Positions 1 through 5,839 of a stretch of 5,839 nt of DNA are shown here, piece after piece (position 1 is the stretch's first letter; each line of letters starts with the position of its first letter). Source of the DNA: Burkholderiaceae bacterium (GTDB taxonomy: Bacteria > Pseudomonadota > Gammaproteobacteria > Burkholderiales > Burkholderiaceae). The notes beneath the pieces were generated by a model, which did not search any database, was not told the origin of the DNA, and was given only the letters and a program-made list of their open reading frames with translations. The DNA is taken from contig JAGOCV010000260.1 in the NCBI GenBank assembly GCA_017998575.1, positions 1 to 5,839 of the forward strand, written 5' to 3'. The position numbers and the translations under genes were made by a program.

Positions 1-394
1 GGTACGTGCCGAACGGAGCCACCGCCAGCGCCGCCGGATAGTTGCCCCACTGCAGCGCCTGCGGCAGCACCCCCGCGGCCGGGTCGAAGATCTCGGCCCG
101 CGTCTTGAACGAGGTGAGCAGCATCCACGCCAGCGGGCTGAGCCACAGCAGCACCGCCGGCACCAGCAGCCACTGCATCCAGCGCGATCGGCCGAAGAGC
201 CTTTTCATCGCCGGGCCGCCCCAAGATGAAAAGCCTCCCCCTCGGGGGGCATGGGGGTCCTCGTTCATCGCCGGGCCGCCCCAAGATGAAAAGCTACCTC
301 CTCGGGGGGCATGGGGGTCCTCGTTCATCGCCGGGCCGCCCCAAGATGAAAAGCTTCCCCCTCGGGCGGCATGAGCGTCATCGTTCTTCAGCAT
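1..394 (-). CDS. CUT1 ABC transporter permease, UgpE/MalG-like (partial, C-terminus off the left edge)
   Basis: This is the second inner-membrane permease of the importer; only its N-terminal part is present. From the ATG at 208 the protein starts MKRLFGRSRW, followed by a hydrophobic first membrane segment (about residues 11-32 of the short form) and then LTSFKTRAEIF, a typical start of MalG/UgpE permeases. The EAA loop lies outside the window. The start is uncertain. The frame stays open upstream to an ATG at 394, 5 nt after the stop of the preceding permease gene, which would fit translational coupling. That start adds 62 residues made of three 20-residue repeats encoded by the 60-bp DNA repeat. 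The ATG at 208 gives the usual family N-terminus, but it has no clear Shine-Dalgarno sequence and lies in a possible stem. Family identity is likely; the true start is open, and the long form is given here because it is coupled. Confidence 0.72.
   Translation of the reverse strand, partial: MLKNDDAHAARGGSFSSWGGPAMNEDPHAPRGGSFSSWGGPAMNEDPHAPRGGGFSSWGGPAMKRLFGRSRWMQWLLVPAVLLWLSPLAWMLLTSFKTRAEIFDPAAGVLPQALQWGNYPAALAVAPFGTY
205..384. repeat. Three tandem 60-bp GC-rich palindromic repeats
   Basis: There are exactly three units of 60 bp, at 205-264, 265-324 and 325-384. Units 1 and 2 differ at about three positions and units 1 and 3 at about five; unit 3 is the most diverged at its right end. Each unit holds an inverted pair, TTCATC and GATGAA, around a GCCGGGCCGCCCC core, followed by a C-run/G-run hairpin (CCCCC TC GGGGG in unit 1). 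The pair is 9 bp long in unit 1 (201-209 with 225-233). The unit resembles the short GC-rich intergenic repeats I associate with Comamonadaceae genomes; that link is from memory. A 60-bp length is 20 codons, so every copy keeps frame. On the minus strand it encodes MNEDPHAPRGGSFSSWGGPA in frame with the downstream permease. Confidence 0.93.
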
Positions 395-399
395 GGTGG

Positions 400-1344
400 T
401 CAGCGCCCCAGGTAGTGCACGCGCCGACCCAGCGTGAGGGCGACGATGCCGATCAGCACGCCCACGACCAGCAGCAGGATGGTGGCGATCGCCGAGGCGG
501 TGCCGATGTCCTGGAACTGGAAGGCGTTCTGGTAGATGTAGAAGGTGAGAACGTTGGTCGCATCGGCCGGGCCGCCCTGCGTCATCACGAACACGTAGTC
601 GAAGATCTGGTAGGAGTGCAGCACGCCGATCACCACCACGAAGTACAGCGTGGGCGAGATCAACGGCACCGTGATGTGCACCAGCTGGCGCAAGCCCGAG
701 ACGCCGTCGAGGCGTGCGGCCTCGTACAGGTCGCGCGGCACCAGCTGCAGCGCGGCCAGCAGGATGAGCATGAAGTAGCCGGCGTACTTCCAGATGCTCA
801 TGAAGATGATGGCCGGCAGTGCCCAGGTGCTGTCGTACAGCCATTCCAGCTTGGGCAGGCCCAGCCAGTTCATCAGCCCGTTGATGGGCCCGTAGCCCGG
901 CGCATACAGGAACACCCACACCATGCCGGCGGCCACGGACGGCACCATCACCGGGTAGAAGAAGGTCGAGCGGTAGAGCGCCGTGCCGCGCAGCTTGCGG
1001 TCCAGCGCCACCGCCAGCAACAGCGCCAGGCCGATGGAAGACGGCACGGTGATCACCATGTAGAGCACGGTGTTGCGCAGCGACTTCCAGAACAGCTCGT
1101 CGTGCCACAGGCGCAGGTAGTTGTCCCAGCCGATGAAGAAAATCTCGGACGAGCCGAGCTGCACGTCGAAGAACCCATAGGCCAGCGAACGCGCGATGGG
1201 CCAGTAGGTGAAGGCCGCCAGGAACACCAGCGACGGCGCGAGCATCACCAGGGCAGTGAGGGCCTCGCGCCGCCGCTGGCTGCTCACCGTGCGGTCGGGC
1301 ACGGCGCGTGCGGCCATCCGGGAATCAGCCAGCGTGGTCGTCAT
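400..1344 (-). CDS. CUT1 ABC transporter permease, UgpA/MalF-like
   Basis: This 314-residue inner-membrane permease would form half of the translocation channel of a sugar or glycerophosphodiester importer. About six membrane segments are visible, near residues 29-50, 90-113, 125-147, 176-200, 231-254 and 284-306. The cytoplasmic EAA loop that docks on the ATPase is clear at about 208-231 (EAARLDG, then HITVPLISP). The stretch TQGGPADATNVLTFYIYQNA (255-274) is typical of the UgpA/MalF group. The ATG at 1344 was chosen because it gives the normal N-terminus, MTTTLADSRM, and lies 4 nt after the stop of the binding-protein gene. The frame is open further upstream to 1509, but that part overlaps the binding-protein gene and looks non-coding. 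No good Shine-Dalgarno sequence is visible, so translational coupling is likely. Substrate cannot be read from the permease itself. Confidence 0.93.
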   Translation of the reverse strand: MTTTLADSRMAARAVPDRTVSSQRRREALTALVMLAPSLVFLAAFTYWPIARSLAYGFFDVQLGSSEIFFIGWDNYLRLWHDELFWKSLRNTVLYMVITVPSSIGLALLLAVALDRKLRGTALYRSTFFYPVMVPSVAAGMVWVFLYAPGYGPINGLMNWLGLPKLEWLYDSTWALPAIIFMSIWKYAGYFMLILLAALQLVPRDLYEAARLDGVSGLRQLVHITVPLISPTLYFVVVIGVLHSYQIFDYVFVMTQGGPADATNVLTFYIYQNAFQFQDIGTASAIATILLLVVGVLIGIVALTLGRRVHYLGR

Positions 1345-1348
1345 GGGC

Positions 1349-2650
1349 TCAGCCGCGGCGGCGCGAGACGCGCTGGATTTCGAGATTGGCCTTGGCGGTG
1401 GCTTCGCGCAGCGCGGCGTCGGGCTTGATCTCGCCGGCCAGCGAGCGGTCGATGGCGCTTTGCAGGAACGAGCGCACCTTGTGGTAGCCCGGCACCTGCA
1501 GGAAGGCACCGGCGACTTCGGCCGTCACGAACGCGGCGCGCGATTCCGGCACCTTGGCCACGTGGGCCTTGAGCACCGGCGTCTCCCACGACGACTTGCG
1601 CGCGGCCAGGTAGCCGGTGTCAACGCACCACTGCGCCTGGTTGGCGGTGTTGGTCATCCAGCGCGCGAATGTCCAGGCGGCGCGCTTGTGCGCGTCGGGC
1701 TGCTTCTTCGCGATGAGGATGGGGCCTCCGCCCATGGTCGAGCCCAGTTGCTTGCCGCGCGGCATGGGCACCACGCCGACCGGGAACGAGGACGACTTGA
1801 GGATGTTGGTCATCGAGCCGGTGGAGTGGTAGAGCATGGCGGTGCGGCCGGCCATGAAATCGTTGGCCGAGCTCTCCCAGGTGGAAGCGGCCGGCATCAG
1901 CCTGGCCTGGGCCATGCGCACCCAGAACTCCATCGCGTCCAGGCTCTCGGGCGCGTCGAACATCACCTTTTCCTTGTTCCAGAACACCAGGCCGTTCTGG
2001 CGCACGAAGCTCTCGAAGATCCAGTCGTGCCAGCCACCGCCGATGGTCAGGCCCCACTGCGAGACGGTGTCGCCCTGGCGGACGGTGAGGGCCCTGGCGG
2101 CGGCTTCCAGTTCGGGCCAGGTGGTCGGCGGCCGGGCGCCGGCTTTCTCGAAGGCGGCCTTGTTGTAGTACAGCACCGGCGTGCTGCACTGGAACGGCAG
2201 GCCGTAGAGCTTGTTGTCGGAAATGCAGGTGCCCAGGAAGCCGGGCAGGAAGTCCTGATAGATGTCGTCGGCGCGGGCCAGTGCGGTCACGTCTTCCAGC
2301 GCATCCATGCCCAGGAAGGTGGTGAGCATGGAATTGATGGGCAGCCACGAGGCCGGCGGATCGCCCACGCCCAGCGCGGTCATCACCTTCTGTTCGGTGT
2401 TGTCGTAGCTGCCGGCGTAGATGGCCTCGACCTGGATGTTGGCGTGCGCGGCGTTGAAACCCGCAATCATGGTGCTGACCAGGCGGTTGATGTCGCCGGA
2501 TACGCCGACCGGATACATGAAGGCCAGCTTGACCTGCTGCTGGCCCGAGGCGAACAGCGGCATGCCGCCGAACATGGCAGCGGCCGAGACACTGGCACTG
2601 CGCTGGAGGAACTGGCGGCGGGGCGTGGGCGTGGAAGCGGAACGGGACAT
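1349..2650 (-). CDS. ABC transporter substrate-binding protein, UgpB-like, with Tat-type signal
   Basis: This 433-residue periplasmic binding protein belongs to the extracellular solute-binding family 1 and is the first gene of the leftward operon. The N-terminus MSRSASTPTPRRQFLQ has a twin-arginine-type motif (RRQFL at 11-15), then an Ala/Ser-rich hydrophobic stretch to about residue 36. The body resembles E. coli UgpB as I remember it: GSYDN at 81-84, LPFQCSTPVLYYNKAAFEKA at 151-170, STGS at 276-279, GGGP near 307-310, DTGYL at 344-348 and a late Arg at 393. Positions equivalent to UgpB ligand residues Tyr65, Tyr346 and Arg397 seem kept (Tyr82, Tyr347, Arg393). Ungapped alignment from Tyr82 puts Asn106 where UgpB has Glu89. 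The ligand is therefore probably a glycerophospho compound but not certainly glycerol-3-phosphate, and a sugar cannot be excluded. The start at 2650 has a strong AGGAG site; the in-frame extension to 2746 runs into the AT-rich promoter region. Confidence 0.93.
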   Translation of the reverse strand: MSRSASTPTPRRQFLQRSASVSAAAMFGGMPLFASGQQQVKLAFMYPVGVSGDINRLVSTMIAGFNAAHANIQVEAIYAGSYDNTEQKVMTALGVGDPPASWLPINSMLTTFLGMDALEDVTALARADDIYQDFLPGFLGTCISDNKLYGLPFQCSTPVLYYNKAAFEKAGARPPTTWPELEAAARALTVRQGDTVSQWGLTIGGGWHDWIFESFVRQNGLVFWNKEKVMFDAPESLDAMEFWVRMAQARLMPAASTWESSANDFMAGRTAMLYHSTGSMTNILKSSSFPVGVVPMPRGKQLGSTMGGGPILIAKKQPDAHKRAAWTFARWMTNTANQAQWCVDTGYLAARKSSWETPVLKAHVAKVPESRAAFVTAEVAGAFLQVPGYHKVRSFLQSAIDRSLAGEIKPDAALREATAKANLEIQRVSRRRG

Positions 2651-2657
2651 GTCGAGG

Positions 2658-2662
2658 CTCCT
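2658..2662 (-). promoter_or_regulatory. Ribosome binding site of the substrate-binding protein gene
   Basis: AGGAG on the minus strand lies 7 nt before the ATG at 2650. This fixes the start against a longer reading that would begin at 2746. It is the clearest Shine-Dalgarno sequence of the leftward operon. Confidence 0.85.
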
Positions 2663-2717
2663 AAGAACAAGGGACGAAGAAATGTTTGCAGGACAGCAGA
2701 CGTGCCGAATGCTGCAT

Positions 2718-2790
2718 TTCCCACATGACAACCATATGAATTCCACACATGCAATTCTTGTTCCACATTATTTTTTGGATTCATGTGGAT
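2718..2790. promoter_or_regulatory. Putative operator array: four phased TTCCACAT-like motifs
   Basis: Three motifs read on the plus strand: TTCCCACAT (2718-2726), TTCCACACAT (2741-2750) and TTCCACAT (2761-2768). A fourth is inverted, ATGTGGAT (2783-2790). Start-to-start distances are 23, 20 and 22 bp, near two helical turns each. The last two form an exact 7-bp inverted repeat, TCCACAT and ATGTGGA, whose arms are offset by 21 bp. This arrangement suits a dimeric or oligomeric regulator acting on both divergent operons. The regulator is not in the window and its family cannot be named from the motif. The sites were found by eye, so chance similarity in AT-rich DNA remains possible. Confidence 0.5.
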
Positions 2791-2812
2791 TTAAAGATTA
2801 AACTGCCACGCC

Positions 2813-3628
2813 ATGACCCCGCCGCTCCTGATCGCCCAGCTGTCCGACAGCCACGTCGGCATGGCGCTCGACGTGCTGGAAGGCCGCATCGACACGCTGG
2901 CCGCCCTGCACCGGGCCATAGCGCATGTGGCGTGCCTGGATCCCCTGCCCGATCTCGTGCTGTTCACCGGCGACCTCGCCGAACGCGGCCATACCGCTGA
3001 ATACGAGGCCATCGCCCAGGCGCTGGCGTCGCTGCCGATGCCCGTGTACGCCGTCCCCGGCAACCATGACCACCCCAGCGTGGCGCGCGATGCCCTGCCT
3101 GCGTGCATGCCGGTGGATGCGGACGCACCAGCACAGACCTGCTGCTTTCACGTGCAGCACGGGGGACTGCACCTGATTGCGCTGGATACGGTGGTGCCCG
3201 GCCGCCCGCACGGTGCGCTGGCCGCGCCGCAACTCGACTGGCTCGCCAGGACGCTCGCCCGATGCGAGGGCCAGCCGGCCCTGCTGTTCATGCACCACCC
3301 TCCCTTGCCCACCGGGATCGAGGCCATGGACGTCTGCAGCCTGCTGCACGGCGGCGACCGGCTGGCCGCGCTCGTGCGCCGCCACGGCCAGGTGCAAGGC
3401 CTGCTGTGCGGCCATCTGCACCGGCCGGTGCAGATGAGCTTCGGCGGCGCACCGCTGCACGTCGCCCCGTCCGTCGCGCACCAGATCGCGCTGGACCTGC
3501 GGCCTTCGGCGCCGCTGCGCGCGCGCATGGAGCCGCCCAAAATCTCGCTTCACCGCTGGACGCCGGCACTGGGGCTGTGTACACATACCAGCTACGTCGG
3601 TGACTTCGGAGAAGGGGTACCCCTGTGA
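2813..3628 (+). CDS. GpdQ-like metallophosphodiesterase (probable glycerophosphodiesterase)
   Basis: This 271-residue protein belongs to the calcineurin-like class III phosphodiesterases, which hydrolyse phosphodiesters at a binuclear metal centre. All metal motifs are present in order: SDSH (Asp12, His14), TGD (Asp54), GNHD (Asn84, His85), MHHPP (His161) and GHLH (His201, His203). They parallel Asp8, His10, Asp50, Asn80, His156, His195 and His197 of Enterobacter GpdQ, which releases glycerol-3-phosphate from glycerophosphoethanolamine. The segment MHHPPLPTGIEAMD is also GpdQ-like, and length is close to GpdQ's 274 residues. No signal peptide is seen, so it is cytoplasmic. The ATG at 2813 lacks a good Shine-Dalgarno sequence, but the next Met (2861) would remove the first metal motif. 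Its stop overlaps the eutB start, which ties it to ethanolamine use. A CpdA-type cyclic-nucleotide phosphodiesterase is the main alternative. Confidence 0.9.
   Translation: MTPPLLIAQLSDSHVGMALDVLEGRIDTLAALHRAIAHVACLDPLPDLVLFTGDLAERGHTAEYEAIAQALASLPMPVYAVPGNHDHPSVARDALPACMPVDADAPAQTCCFHVQHGGLHLIALDTVVPGRPHGALAAPQLDWLARTLARCEGQPALLFMHHPPLPTGIEAMDVCSLLHGGDRLAALVRRHGQVQGLLCGHLHRPVQMSFGGAPLHVAPSVAHQIALDLRPSAPLRARMEPPKISLHRWTPALGLCTHTSYVGDFGEGVPL
3608..3617 (+). promoter_or_regulatory. Ribosome binding site of eutB
   Basis: The purine run GGAGAAGGGG ends 10 nt before the ATG at 3628 and lies inside the last codons of the phosphodiesterase gene. It also serves an in-frame GTG at 3625; the ATG is preferred because it forms a TGATG stop/start overlap. 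Confidence 0.6.
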
Positions 3629-5016
3629 TGCAAGCCCAAAGCGGAGGCGAGCGGCATCGCTTCCAGGATCTGCGCGAACTGCTGGCCTGCGCGTCGCCCG
3701 CGCGCTCGGGCGACGAGCTCGCGGGCCTGGCCGCCAGCAGCCAGCAGCGCCGCGTGGCCGCGCGCGAGGCGCTGGCCGCGTTGCCGCTCAGGCACTTCCT
3801 GCAGGAAGCCGTCGTGCCCTACGAGACTGACGAGGTCACGCGGCTGATCATCGACAGCCACGACGCGGCCGCATTCGCGCCGGTGGCGCACCTCACCGTG
3901 GGCGACTTCCGCGACTGGCTGCTGTCCGATGCCGCCGACACCGCCGCCCTGCAGGCGCTGGCGCCGGGGCTCACGCCCGAGATGGTGGCGGCGGTGAGCA
4001 AGCTCATGCGCAACCAGGATCTCATCCTGGTGGCCAGCCACTGCGAGGTGGTCACGCGCTTTCGCAACACGCTGGGCCTGAAAGGCCACCTGGCCGTGCG
4101 GCTGCAGCCCAACCATCCTTCCGACGATCCCGCCGGCATCCTGGCCAGCGTGCTCGACGGGCTGATGTATGGCGCGGGCGATGCGTGCATCGGCGTCAAT
4201 CCGGTGAGCGACAGCGTGCCCGATCTGGTGCGCCTGCTGCACCTGTTCGACGACATCGTGCACCGCCATGCGGTGCCCACGCAATGTTGCGTGCTCACGC
4301 ACATCACCAACACCATGCAGGCGCTCGGCCATGGCGCGCCGGTGGACCTCGTGTTCCAGAGCATCGCCGGCACCGAGGCCGCCAACCGGAGCTTCGGCAT
4401 CGACCTGGCCCTGCTCGACGACGTGCACGCCGCCGCGCGCGAACTGCGCCGCGGCACCGTGGGCGACAACCTCATGTACTTCGAAACCGGCCAGGGCAGC
4501 GCGCTGTCTGCCGGCGCGCACCATGGCGTGGACCAGCAGACGCTTGAAGCACGGGCCTATGCGGTCGCGCGGCGCCACCGTCCGCTGCTGGTCAACACGG
4601 TCGTCGGCTTCATCGGCCCGGAATACCTCTACGACGGCCGGCAGATCATCCGCGCCGGCCTGGAAGACCATTTCTGCGGCAAGCTGCTGGGCCTGCCGAT
4701 GGGCTGCGACATCTGCTACACGAACCATGCCGAGGCCGACCAGGACGACATGGACAACCTGCTGGTGCTGCTGTCCAGCGCCGGCCTGAACTTCATGATG
4801 GGCGTGCCCGGCGCGGACGACGTGATGCTTAACTACCAGAGCACGTCGTTCCACGATGCGCTCTTCGTGCGCCGCCTGCACGGCAAGCGCCGCGCGCCCG
4901 AGTTCGAGGCCTGGCTGCAGGCGCAGGGTCTGGTCGACGCCGACGGCGCCCTGCGCGCGCCACGCGACGTGCCGGCGCTGGCGCGCCGCTTCAGCCCCTT
5001 GCTGGAGTCCGCATGA
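3628..5016 (+). CDS. eutB: Ethanolamine ammonia-lyase, large subunit EutB
   Basis: EutB is the catalytic large subunit of adenosylcobalamin-dependent ethanolamine ammonia-lyase, which converts ethanolamine to acetaldehyde and ammonia. The protein has 462 residues, close to the 453 of E. coli EutB, and looks intact. The substrate-pocket residues known from the E. coli enzyme are all found at nearly the same numbers: Arg158 and Gln160 in VRLQPNHPSDD, Asn191 in GVNPVSD, Glu286 in YFETGQGSALSAG, Phe328 in VVGFIGPEYLYDG, Asp361 in GCDICYTNHAEAD and Met391 in FMMGVPGADD. The ATG at 3628 overlaps the phosphodiesterase stop as TGATG; a GTG one codon earlier is an alternative. The gene ends in an ATGA overlap with eutC, fitting equal production of the two subunits. 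No shell-protein gene is nearby, so the enzyme probably acts free in the cytoplasm. Function is very likely as stated. Confidence 0.98.
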   Translation: MQAQSGGERHRFQDLRELLACASPARSGDELAGLAASSQQRRVAAREALAALPLRHFLQEAVVPYETDEVTRLIIDSHDAAAFAPVAHLTVGDFRDWLLSDAADTAALQALAPGLTPEMVAAVSKLMRNQDLILVASHCEVVTRFRNTLGLKGHLAVRLQPNHPSDDPAGILASVLDGLMYGAGDACIGVNPVSDSVPDLVRLLHLFDDIVHRHAVPTQCCVLTHITNTMQALGHGAPVDLVFQSIAGTEAANRSFGIDLALLDDVHAAARELRRGTVGDNLMYFETGQGSALSAGAHHGVDQQTLEARAYAVARRHRPLLVNTVVGFIGPEYLYDGRQIIRAGLEDHFCGKLLGLPMGCDICYTNHAEADQDDMDNLLVLLSSAGLNFMMGVPGADDVMLNYQSTSFHDALFVRRLHGKRRAPEFEAWLQAQGLVDADGALRAPRDVPALARRFSPLLESA

Positions 5017-5783
5017 ACGCCCCCGTCGACGCCGATCCGTGGGCGCCGCTGCGGCGCCACACGCCGGCCCGCATCGCACTCGGCCGCAGCGGCACCAGCC
5101 TGCCCACGCACGAGTTGCTGCGCTTCGCCGCTGCGCATGCGCGCGCACGCGACGCCGTGCACGTGCCGCTGGACGTGCCGGCGCTGCTGGCCGGGCTGCA
5201 GGCCGAGGGCCAGCCCGTGATGTGCGTGCACAGCCGCGCGCAGTCGCGGCAGGACTACCTGCGCCGGCCCGACCATGGCCGTGCGCTGGACGAGCCCAGC
5301 CGGCAGATGCTGTGCGAGCTGCCGCGTGCGCGCGTGGATCTGGCCGTCGTCATCGGCGACGGCCTGTCGGCGCTGGCCGTGCAGTCGCATGCGGCGGCCG
5401 TGCTTCAGTCGCTGCGCCGGGCGCTGGCGCCGCGCGCCGGAGAACCCCCGCTTGCCTGGGGGCCCACGGTTGTGGCCACGCAGGCCCGCGTGGCCCTGGC
5501 GGATGAGATCGGCGCCGCGCTCGGCGCGCGCCTGGTGCTGATCCTGCTGGGCGAGCGACCCGGCCTCAGCGCGGCCGACAGCCTGGGCGCCTACCTCACG
5601 CACGCGCCGCGCGTGGGCCGCACCGATGCCGAGCGCAACTGCGTCAGCAACATCCGCGGCGAAGGCCTGCCGCCCGAGGCCGCAGGACGCCGTCTCGCCT
5701 GGCTGGTGCGGGAATCACTGCGCCTGGGCCTCTCGGGCATCGGGCTCAAGGACCACAGCGCCATCGACAAGCTTTCCTCATGA
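5013..5783 (+). CDS. eutC: Ethanolamine ammonia-lyase, small subunit EutC
   Basis: EutC is the small subunit that completes the ethanolamine ammonia-lyase and helps bind adenosylcobalamin. The 256-residue product is shorter than E. coli EutC (about 295), mainly through a shorter N-terminus. Family motifs run in order: ARIALGRSGTSLPTHELL (19-36), SRQDYLRRPDHGR (78-90), VVIGDGLSA (112-120), LLGERPGLSAADSLGAYLT (178-196) and RNCVSNIR (208-215). The start at 5013 overlaps the eutB stop by 4 nt (ATGA) and has GGAG at 5004-5007, 5 nt upstream. The C-terminus is complete and overlaps the next start by another ATGA. No key segment appears to be missing. The reading is secure from sequence and from its position after eutB. 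Confidence 0.97.
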   Translation: MNAPVDADPWAPLRRHTPARIALGRSGTSLPTHELLRFAAAHARARDAVHVPLDVPALLAGLQAEGQPVMCVHSRAQSRQDYLRRPDHGRALDEPSRQMLCELPRARVDLAVVIGDGLSALAVQSHAAAVLQSLRRALAPRAGEPPLAWGPTVVATQARVALADEIGAALGARLVLILLGERPGLSAADSLGAYLTHAPRVGRTDAERNCVSNIRGEGLPPEAAGRRLAWLVRESLRLGLSGIGLKDHSAIDKLSS

Positions 5784-5839
5784 ATCCTCCCACTCCCCAG
5801 ACCCTGGCCCTGTTCGACCTGGATCACACGCTGCTCGAC
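5780..5839 (+). CDS. HAD-superfamily phosphatase, N-terminus only (cut by the right edge)
   Basis: Only 20 codons are present: MNPPTPQTLALFDLDHTLLD. The hydrophobic strand LALF followed by DLDHT is the HAD motif I, with Asp13 as the likely nucleophile, Asp15 as the likely acid/base and Thr17 completing DxDxT. This supports a phosphate-ester hydrolase, possibly of the SerB-like subclass, but the substrate cannot be inferred. The ATG at 5780 overlaps the eutC stop (ATGA), so it is probably co-transcribed with eutBC; no Shine-Dalgarno sequence is obvious and coupling is likely. It could belong to the pathway, or be an ordinary housekeeping phosphatase that happens to lie downstream. Confidence 0.8.
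   Translation, partial: MNPPTPQTLALFDLDHTLLD

What the first reader, a model, noticed from the sequence alone, without database searches (positions are those of the whole stretch)
400..5783. Candidate complete route for glycerophosphoethanolamine: import, hydrolysis, deamination
A GpdQ-like phosphodiesterase is overlap-coupled to eutBC and faces a UgpB-like importer operon across a shared control region. Seen: all genes, their overlaps and intact catalytic motifs. Known: GpdQ cleaves glycerophosphoethanolamine, Ugp systems import glycerol-3-phosphate and glycerophosphodiesters, and EutBC deaminates ethanolamine. Inferred: the importer takes up glycerophosphoethanolamine, so that the cell gains phosphate, carbon and nitrogen from one phospholipid headgroup product. 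There is no ethanolamine permease beside eutBC in the window, which fits ethanolamine being produced inside the cell.
Basis: partly seen in the sequence, partly recalled or inferred. Interest (0 to 1): 0.72.

Follow-up and report, generated by a model that had tools for sequence, protein, structure and literature searches.

The report
Phospholipid-headgroup import operon with ethanolamine lyase
A bacterium related to the Burkholderiales appears to have wired the enzyme that breaks down ethanolamine into an operon that imports and cuts a deacylated phospholipid headgroup, probably glycerophosphoethanolamine, so that one scavenged molecule could give carbon, nitrogen and phosphate.

Summary
In detail: a UgpB-like binding protein and permeases face, across a 162-bp gap, a translationally coupled phosphodiesterase-eutB-eutC-phosphatase operon. 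For it: 8 of 9 glycerol-phosphate-binding positions of E. coli UgpB are kept; GpdQ is the phosphodiesterase's best fold match; the nearest held genome (L001/G001) keeps the layout under purifying selection and has no Eat-type ethanolamine permease, whereas 16 of 38 other eutB loci have one nearby. Against it: the importer-phosphodiesterase module is wider than its link to eutBC. Only L001 of 80 phosphodiesterase loci, and none of 38 other eutB loci, joins the two; 4 of 8 module genomes show no eutB. G001 also has a classical UgpBAECQ operon, so this is a second, diverged system with unproven ligand. New: in L001 the unit includes UgpC, a GlpR-like regulator and a HAD phosphatase paralogue. In relatives that paralogue follows the phosphodiesterase directly, so eutBC looks inserted; a similar paralogue follows eutBC in two aminoethylphosphonate operons, hinting at phosphoethanolamine as its substrate. 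Best reading: import and breakdown of a glycerophosphodiester, most likely glycerophosphoethanolamine here; a new variant of known parts.

The parts
1..208 (-). UgpE-like permease, 5' part (cut by the window end; start MKRLFG..)
   Evidence: translation; the full-length relative L001:6695-7585 hits PF00528
204..386 (.). three tandem copies of a 60-bp unit between ugpE and ugpA
   Evidence: one copy at the same place in L001 (read by eye); dispersed in G001
400..1344 (-). UgpA-like permease, 314 aa
   Evidence: PF00528; NCBIfam UgpA 144 bits, cut-off 335
1349..2650 (-). UgpB-like solute-binding protein, 433 aa
2651..2812 (.). shared control region with TTCCACA-like repeats (2719, 2741, 2761, and inverted at 2784)
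   Evidence: 97.5% identical in L001
2813..3628 (+). GpdQ-like metallophosphodiesterase, 271 aa
3628..5016 (+). eutB, ethanolamine ammonia-lyase large subunit, 462 aa from ATG (GTG at 3625 also possible)
5013..5783 (+). eutC, ethanolamine ammonia-lyase small subunit, 256 aa
5780..5839 (+). HAD-IB phosphatase, first 20 codons (cut by the window end)
   Evidence: full-length relative L001:12968-13663 is PF12710 / TIGR01490

Best explanation
The two divergent operons form one scavenging unit. A UgpB-like binding protein with UgpA and UgpE permeases (and, in L001, a UgpC ATPase) imports a glycerophosphodiester, most likely glycerophosphoethanolamine in this lineage. The GpdQ-like enzyme cuts it inside the cell to a phosphomonoester and an alcohol. 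EutBC turns the ethanolamine into acetaldehyde and ammonia. The HAD phosphatase releases phosphate from the phosphomonoester (glycerol phosphate or phosphoethanolamine, depending on which bond is cut). A GlpR-like DeoR regulator (seen in L001) probably senses a product. Shown here: gene content, coupling, conserved residues, conservation in a second species, no Eat permease found there. Inferred: ligand, reaction, direction of cleavage, regulation.
For: E. coli UgpB ligand positions Y42, S121, W169, W172, S247, G284, Y323 and R374 correspond to window Y82, S156, W207, W210, S276, G308, Y347 and R393, kept in 25 or 26 of 26 family rows; only E66 differs (N106 in 25 of 26) (the same residue types are given for Phaeobacter UgpB in PMC12718374, parts 1-4 of 6 read). 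A family profile ranks E. coli UgpB first among solved structures. The phosphodiesterase model (pLDDT 90.4) matches GpdQ best, TM 0.84-0.87. A passage in PMC4926365 calls glycerophosphoethanolamine GpdQ's natural substrate. In 42 of 80 loci this enzyme family lies within 6.5 kb of a CUT1- or PotD/PhnS-type importer. L001 keeps the whole layout with dN/dS 0.05-0.24. Eat permease: no match in G001; matches in both control genomes.
Against: eutBC adjacency is seen in 1 of 80 phosphodiesterase loci and 0 of 38 other EutB loci. G003, G005, G007 and G008 carry the module but show no EutB. The phosphodiesterase is not beside the binding protein in 4 of 9 genomes found by the binding protein, 4 of 7 if the two search centres are left out. 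Classical UgpB is separate in 5 of 7 genomes, with UgpQ in both of those operons that were read, G001 and G209. E66-to-N falls at a glycerol-hydroxyl contact. Structural matches of the binding protein to glycerol-phosphate, dinucleotide and glycerophosphocholine binders lie within about 1 Z unit (44.3-45.3), with a trehalose/maltose binder at 43.9. 38 of 80 loci have neither importer type. No ligand data.
Confidence: 0.5

Rival explanations
1. The importer and phosphodiesterase handle glycerophosphodiesters in general, or another phosphodiester; eutBC was inserted downstream by chance or for ordinary ethanolamine use and merely shares the promoter.
For: The importer-phosphodiesterase module occurs in alpha- and betaproteobacteria without adjacent eutBC, and 4 of 8 module genomes show no eutB; eutBC sits between phosphodiesterase and HAD only in the window and L001 of the loci read.
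Against: Tight translational coupling on both sides, kept in two species with purifying selection; no Eat permease found in G001.
Confidence: 0.27
2. The importer takes up only glycerol phosphates; the phosphodiesterase, HAD and EutBC recycle glycerophosphoethanolamine from the cell's own membrane turnover.
For: The pocket residues are those that bind bare G3P/G1P (PMC12718374). No ethanolamine permease would be needed.
Against: G001 already has a classical UgpBAECQ system for that job; the phosphodiesterase family recurs beside importers of two types.
Confidence: 0.13
3. The phosphodiesterase is a cyclic-nucleotide phosphodiesterase unrelated to headgroup uptake.
For: NCBIfam scores are highest for SpdA (124.8 bits) and CpdA (102.2), though far below the cut-offs 400 and 225; the catalytic residues are shared by the whole class (recalled).
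Against: Best full-length fold match is GpdQ, ahead of Rv0805; repeated linkage to importers.
Confidence: 0.08

Closest known systems
Classical UgpBAECQ (E. coli K-12, L086; also G001 L185)
   Same: CUT1 importer with a UgpB-type glycerol-phosphate pocket, paired with a phosphodiesterase
   Different: Here the phosphodiesterase is a metallophosphoesterase, not GDPD-type UgpQ; L001 adds a GlpR-like regulator; the proteins score below the equivalog cut-offs; G001 has both systems
GpdQ glycerophosphodiesterase of Enterobacter aerogenes
   Same: Same fold and metal-ligand motifs
   Different: 29% identity in the structural match; activity untested
eat-eutB-eutC loci of the sampled family
   Same: Same EutBC enzyme
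   Different: A permease gene lies within 4 kb of eutB in 16 of 38 loci; here a phosphodiesterase is upstream
phnS2-phnT2-phnU2-phnW-eutB-eutC-HAD operon (L130, L131)
   Same: eutBC followed by a HAD phosphatase paralogue and preceded by an organophosphorus-type ABC importer
   Different: Aminoethylphosphonate-type importer and PhnW instead of Ugp-type importer and phosphodiesterase
Martelella plasmid locus NZ_CP054860 (L173)
   Same: Divergent phosphodiesterase and binding protein-permeases-ATPase-GlpR-type regulator
   Different: Ends in hisN instead of HAD; no eutBC annotated in the 19 kb shown (that table is incomplete by its description)

Membership tests
UgpB (sn-glycerol-3-phosphate binding protein) | score over the curated equivalog cut-off | tested here: not met
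   104 bits, cut-off 411
UgpB (sn-glycerol-3-phosphate binding protein) | nine ligand-contact residues | tested here: inconclusive
   8 of 9 kept, E66 replaced by N106
UgpB (sn-glycerol-3-phosphate binding protein) | binds glycerol phosphate or a glycerophosphodiester | not testable with these tools
   needs a binding assay
GpdQ-type glycerophosphodiesterase | fold and metal-ligand motifs | tested here: met
   these are shared with other class members and do not single out GpdQ
GpdQ-type glycerophosphodiesterase | hydrolysis of glycerophosphoethanolamine | not testable with these tools
   needs an enzyme assay
CpdA / SpdA cyclic-nucleotide phosphodiesterase | score over the curated cut-off | tested here: not met
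   SpdA 124.8 vs 400, CpdA 102.2 vs 225
EutBC ethanolamine ammonia-lyase | both subunits over curated cut-offs | tested here: met
   711.6 vs 554 and 312.2 vs 230
Classical UgpBAECQ operon | GDPD-type UgpQ in the operon | tested here: not met
   the phosphodiesterase is PF00149; none of the ten L001 proteins scanned is a GDPD
HAD-IB histidinol-phosphatase (HolPasePseu) | score over the curated cut-off | tested here: not met
   L001 HAD 225 vs 280; another copy in G001 scores 279, also just under

The most novel reading that the evidence does not exclude
EutBC together with a diverged histidinol-phosphatase-like HAD enzyme forms a recurring unit for phosphorylated ethanolamine. It appears to have come together at least twice, once in a glycerophosphodiester import operon (window, L001) and once in an aminoethylphosphonate-type operon (L130, L131). 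Both routes would feed ethanolamine made inside the cell to EutBC without an ethanolamine permease, and the HAD enzyme would be an O-phosphoethanolamine phosphatase.
Probability: 0.25. Interest if true: 0.62.

Novelty: new variant of a known kind. Interest (0 to 1): 0.46.

Why it matters
If true, one operon pair would link uptake of a phospholipid breakdown product to recovery of its phosphate, carbon and nitrogen, and EutBC would be fed by intracellular hydrolysis rather than by ethanolamine uptake. It would also give a concrete ligand hypothesis for a UgpB-like subfamily found in alpha- and betaproteobacteria, and a substrate hypothesis for an unassigned phosphatase paralogue.

Tried and rejected
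Tried without result: Rfam scan (0 matches). No own genome is held for the window, so the near relative G001 stood in for it; its genus holds no other genome. Papers: ten searches. Nothing in their listings looked like a eutBC-UgpB-phosphodiesterase or PhnW-EutB operon; I judged by titles and abstract starts only, except for PMC12718374 (outline and parts 1-4 of 6 read) and PMC4926365 (passages). By the tool's own description the library lacks most papers of subscription journals.

Considered and dropped: that the HAD gene arrived together with eutBC. In a tree of 10 HADs the L001 sequence groups with those next to the module in L002, L003 and L127 (100/99), apart from those of the PhnW operons. 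The EutB tree (38 rows) puts the window with L001 (100/100) but does not settle where their eutBC came from. That the TTCCACA repeats prove an operator: four matches with at most one mismatch against a mean of 0.43 in shuffles, reached by 0.2% of 2000 shuffles, but the motif was picked after looking, the shuffles keep single-base content only, and its presence in L002 and L003 was judged by eye. In L022 I saw no such motif.

EutB contexts: 38 loci read of the 86 non-G001 genomes with EutB, the highest-scoring ones except G065, which I left out because its contig is short. Genome samples were drawn evenly from larger groups. G001 is a MAG, so the missing permease may be a gap in the assembly; the model-based permease search had no control genome over the cut-off and gave weaker, below-cut-off matches in 4 of 5 genomes, G001 included (best there 69 bits, cut-off 381.75). 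Gene calls in scripts are my own simple caller and missed some genes (for example eutC in L001 and the phosphodiesterase in L003, which tblastn found).
Full report
WHAT IS THERE. The window (5839 bp, 68.6% GC) holds two divergent operons. Leftward: a UgpB-like binding protein (1349-2650), a UgpA-like permease (400-1344) and the start of a UgpE-like permease (1-208). Rightward: a metallophosphodiesterase (2813-3628), eutB (3628-5016), eutC (5013-5783) and the first codons of a HAD phosphatase (5780-5839). The rightward genes overlap as TGATG, ATGA and ATGA. The nearest held locus, L001 (a Burkholderiales MAG, genome G001), has 97% identical binding protein, 91% phosphodiesterase, 96% EutB and 92% EutC.

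THE UNIT IS LARGER THAN THE WINDOW. L001 shows ugpC and a DeoR-type regulator after ugpE, and the full HAD gene after eutC. The regulator scores best for GlpR, below cut-off (134 vs 331). Between L001 and the window all five genes compared are under purifying selection: dN and dS are 0.007/0.151 for ugpA, 0.011/0.171 for the binding protein, 0.056/0.231 for the phosphodiesterase, 0.024/0.241 for eutB and 0.043/0.246 for eutC. The 162-bp shared gap is 97.5% identical.

THE BINDING PROTEIN. It is UgpB-like but not the classical UgpB (104 bits vs cut-off 411). E. coli UgpB is the best hit of a family profile against solved structures (160 bits). Eight of nine ligand positions are kept in 25 or 26 of 26 family rows; the exception is E66, which is N106 here. 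The same nine residue types bind G1P/G3P in Phaeobacter UgpB, where two tryptophans clamp the glycerol (PMC12718374, parts 1-4 of 6 read). The predicted model (pLDDT 83.9) matches glycerol-phosphate, dinucleotide and glycerophosphocholine binders within about one Z unit (44.3-45.3) and a trehalose/maltose binder at 43.9, so the fold does not choose the ligand. G001, G002, G003, G159 and G209 each also have a classical UgpB over the cut-off, 5 of 7 genomes tested. In the two of those operons that I read, G001 and G209, it is complete with a GDPD-type UgpQ. The window's system is therefore most likely a second, diverged one.

THE PHOSPHODIESTERASE. It is below the cut-offs for CpdA and SpdA. Its model (pLDDT 90.4) matches GpdQ best, TM 0.84-0.87, ahead of Rv0805. 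A passage in PMC4926365 names glycerophosphoethanolamine as GpdQ's natural substrate. Metal-ligand motifs are intact, but they do not tell class members apart.

HOW THE PARTS TRAVEL. Among the 80 phosphodiesterase loci kept from the scan, 17 have a CUT1-type importer and 29 a PotD/PhnS-type importer within 6.5 kb, 42 in all; 38 have neither. Eight have the window's own binding-protein family, divergent from the phosphodiesterase. Searches by the binding protein found it in 4 of 299, 1 of 399 (G001 itself) and 5 of 385 genomes, nine distinct genomes. Five of the nine have the phosphodiesterase beside it (G001, G003, G006, G987, G993) and four do not (G159, G209, G928, G1010). G001 and G006 were the search centres and had been picked by that adjacency; without them it is 3 of 7. 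Three of the four exceptions have a relative of the phosphodiesterase elsewhere, and G209 has none. A Martelella plasmid has the same divergent layout, ending in hisN. The importer-phosphodiesterase pairing is therefore real but not strict.

EUTBC LOOKS LIKE AN ADDITION. eutBC adjoins the phosphodiesterase in 1 of the 80 loci, L001, and in none of 38 other EutB loci read (EutB was found in 87 of 299 genomes). Of those 38, 16 have an Eat-type permease within 4 kb and 2 have PhnW and a HAD gene. EutB is present in 4 of 8 module genomes; two further ones, G159 and G209, are not among the matches, whose list of searched genomes is cut. So the module does not depend on ethanolamine breakdown. In L002 and L003 the HAD gene follows the phosphodiesterase directly, and the L001 HAD groups with those of L002, L003 and L127 (100/99). 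The simplest reading is insertion of eutBC between phosphodiesterase and HAD. G001 has one eutB and no match to an Eat permease at E 1e-20, while both control genomes matched (one is the query's own genome). A model-based search found none over the cut-off in 5 genomes, with weaker matches in 4 of them and no control genome over the cut-off. This fits ethanolamine being made inside the cell, with the caveat that G001 is a MAG.

THE PHOSPHATASE. Ten of 11 genomes searched have a HAD copy scoring 271-299 bits against the histidinol-phosphatase model (8 of them over the cut-off of 280); the eleventh, G255, has at most 199. G001, G002, G003, G004 and G209 have a further copy (203-225 bits) at this module, and G178 and G019 have one (231, 213) after eutBC in a phnS2-T2-U2-phnW operon. 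G286, G121 and G159, whose loci showed neither arrangement, have no second copy over 31 bits. Against a tidy rule, G004 has one more copy elsewhere (198 bits), and G255 has its 199-bit copy on another contig than its eutBC. In L059 the last gene of the module is an IMPase-type histidinol phosphatase over its cut-off (283 vs 275), clustering with the gene in L080 and overlapping the regulator gene by 4 bp. A phosphatase thus recurs in this module from two unrelated families. Histidinol phosphate and phosphoethanolamine share the amino-alcohol phosphate group (recalled chemistry), which makes phosphoethanolamine a reasonable but untested substrate.

VERDICT. A scavenging unit for a glycerophosphodiester, most likely glycerophosphoethanolamine in the window's lineage, is the best-supported reading (0.5). 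Known enzymes in a new combination: a new variant of a known kind.

Noticed in passing
L130 1680-9544 and L131 4055-12001: An aminoethylphosphonate-type importer with phnW is followed by eutB, eutC and a HAD phosphatase paralogue; possibly a combined aminoethylphosphonate and phosphoethanolamine route.
   Followed up: partly
window 204-386: Three tandem copies of a 60-bp unit lie between ugpE and ugpA; L001 shows one copy there, and the unit is dispersed in G001 (8 matches, that copy included). It reads through in frame upstream of ugpE.
   Followed up: partly
L189 2577-13379: Two different phosphodiesterase paralogues lie end to end, each next to its own type of ABC importer.
   Followed up: no
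L174 8007-14562: Azospirillum thermophilum plasmid: a phosphodiesterase of this family lies 3.6 kb from eutB-eutC-eat, with other genes between.
   Followed up: no
L059 3856-4641 and L173 14009-14788: An IMPase-type histidinol phosphatase gene overlaps the GlpR-type regulator gene by 4 bp at the end of the same importer operon in alphaproteobacteria.
   Followed up: partly
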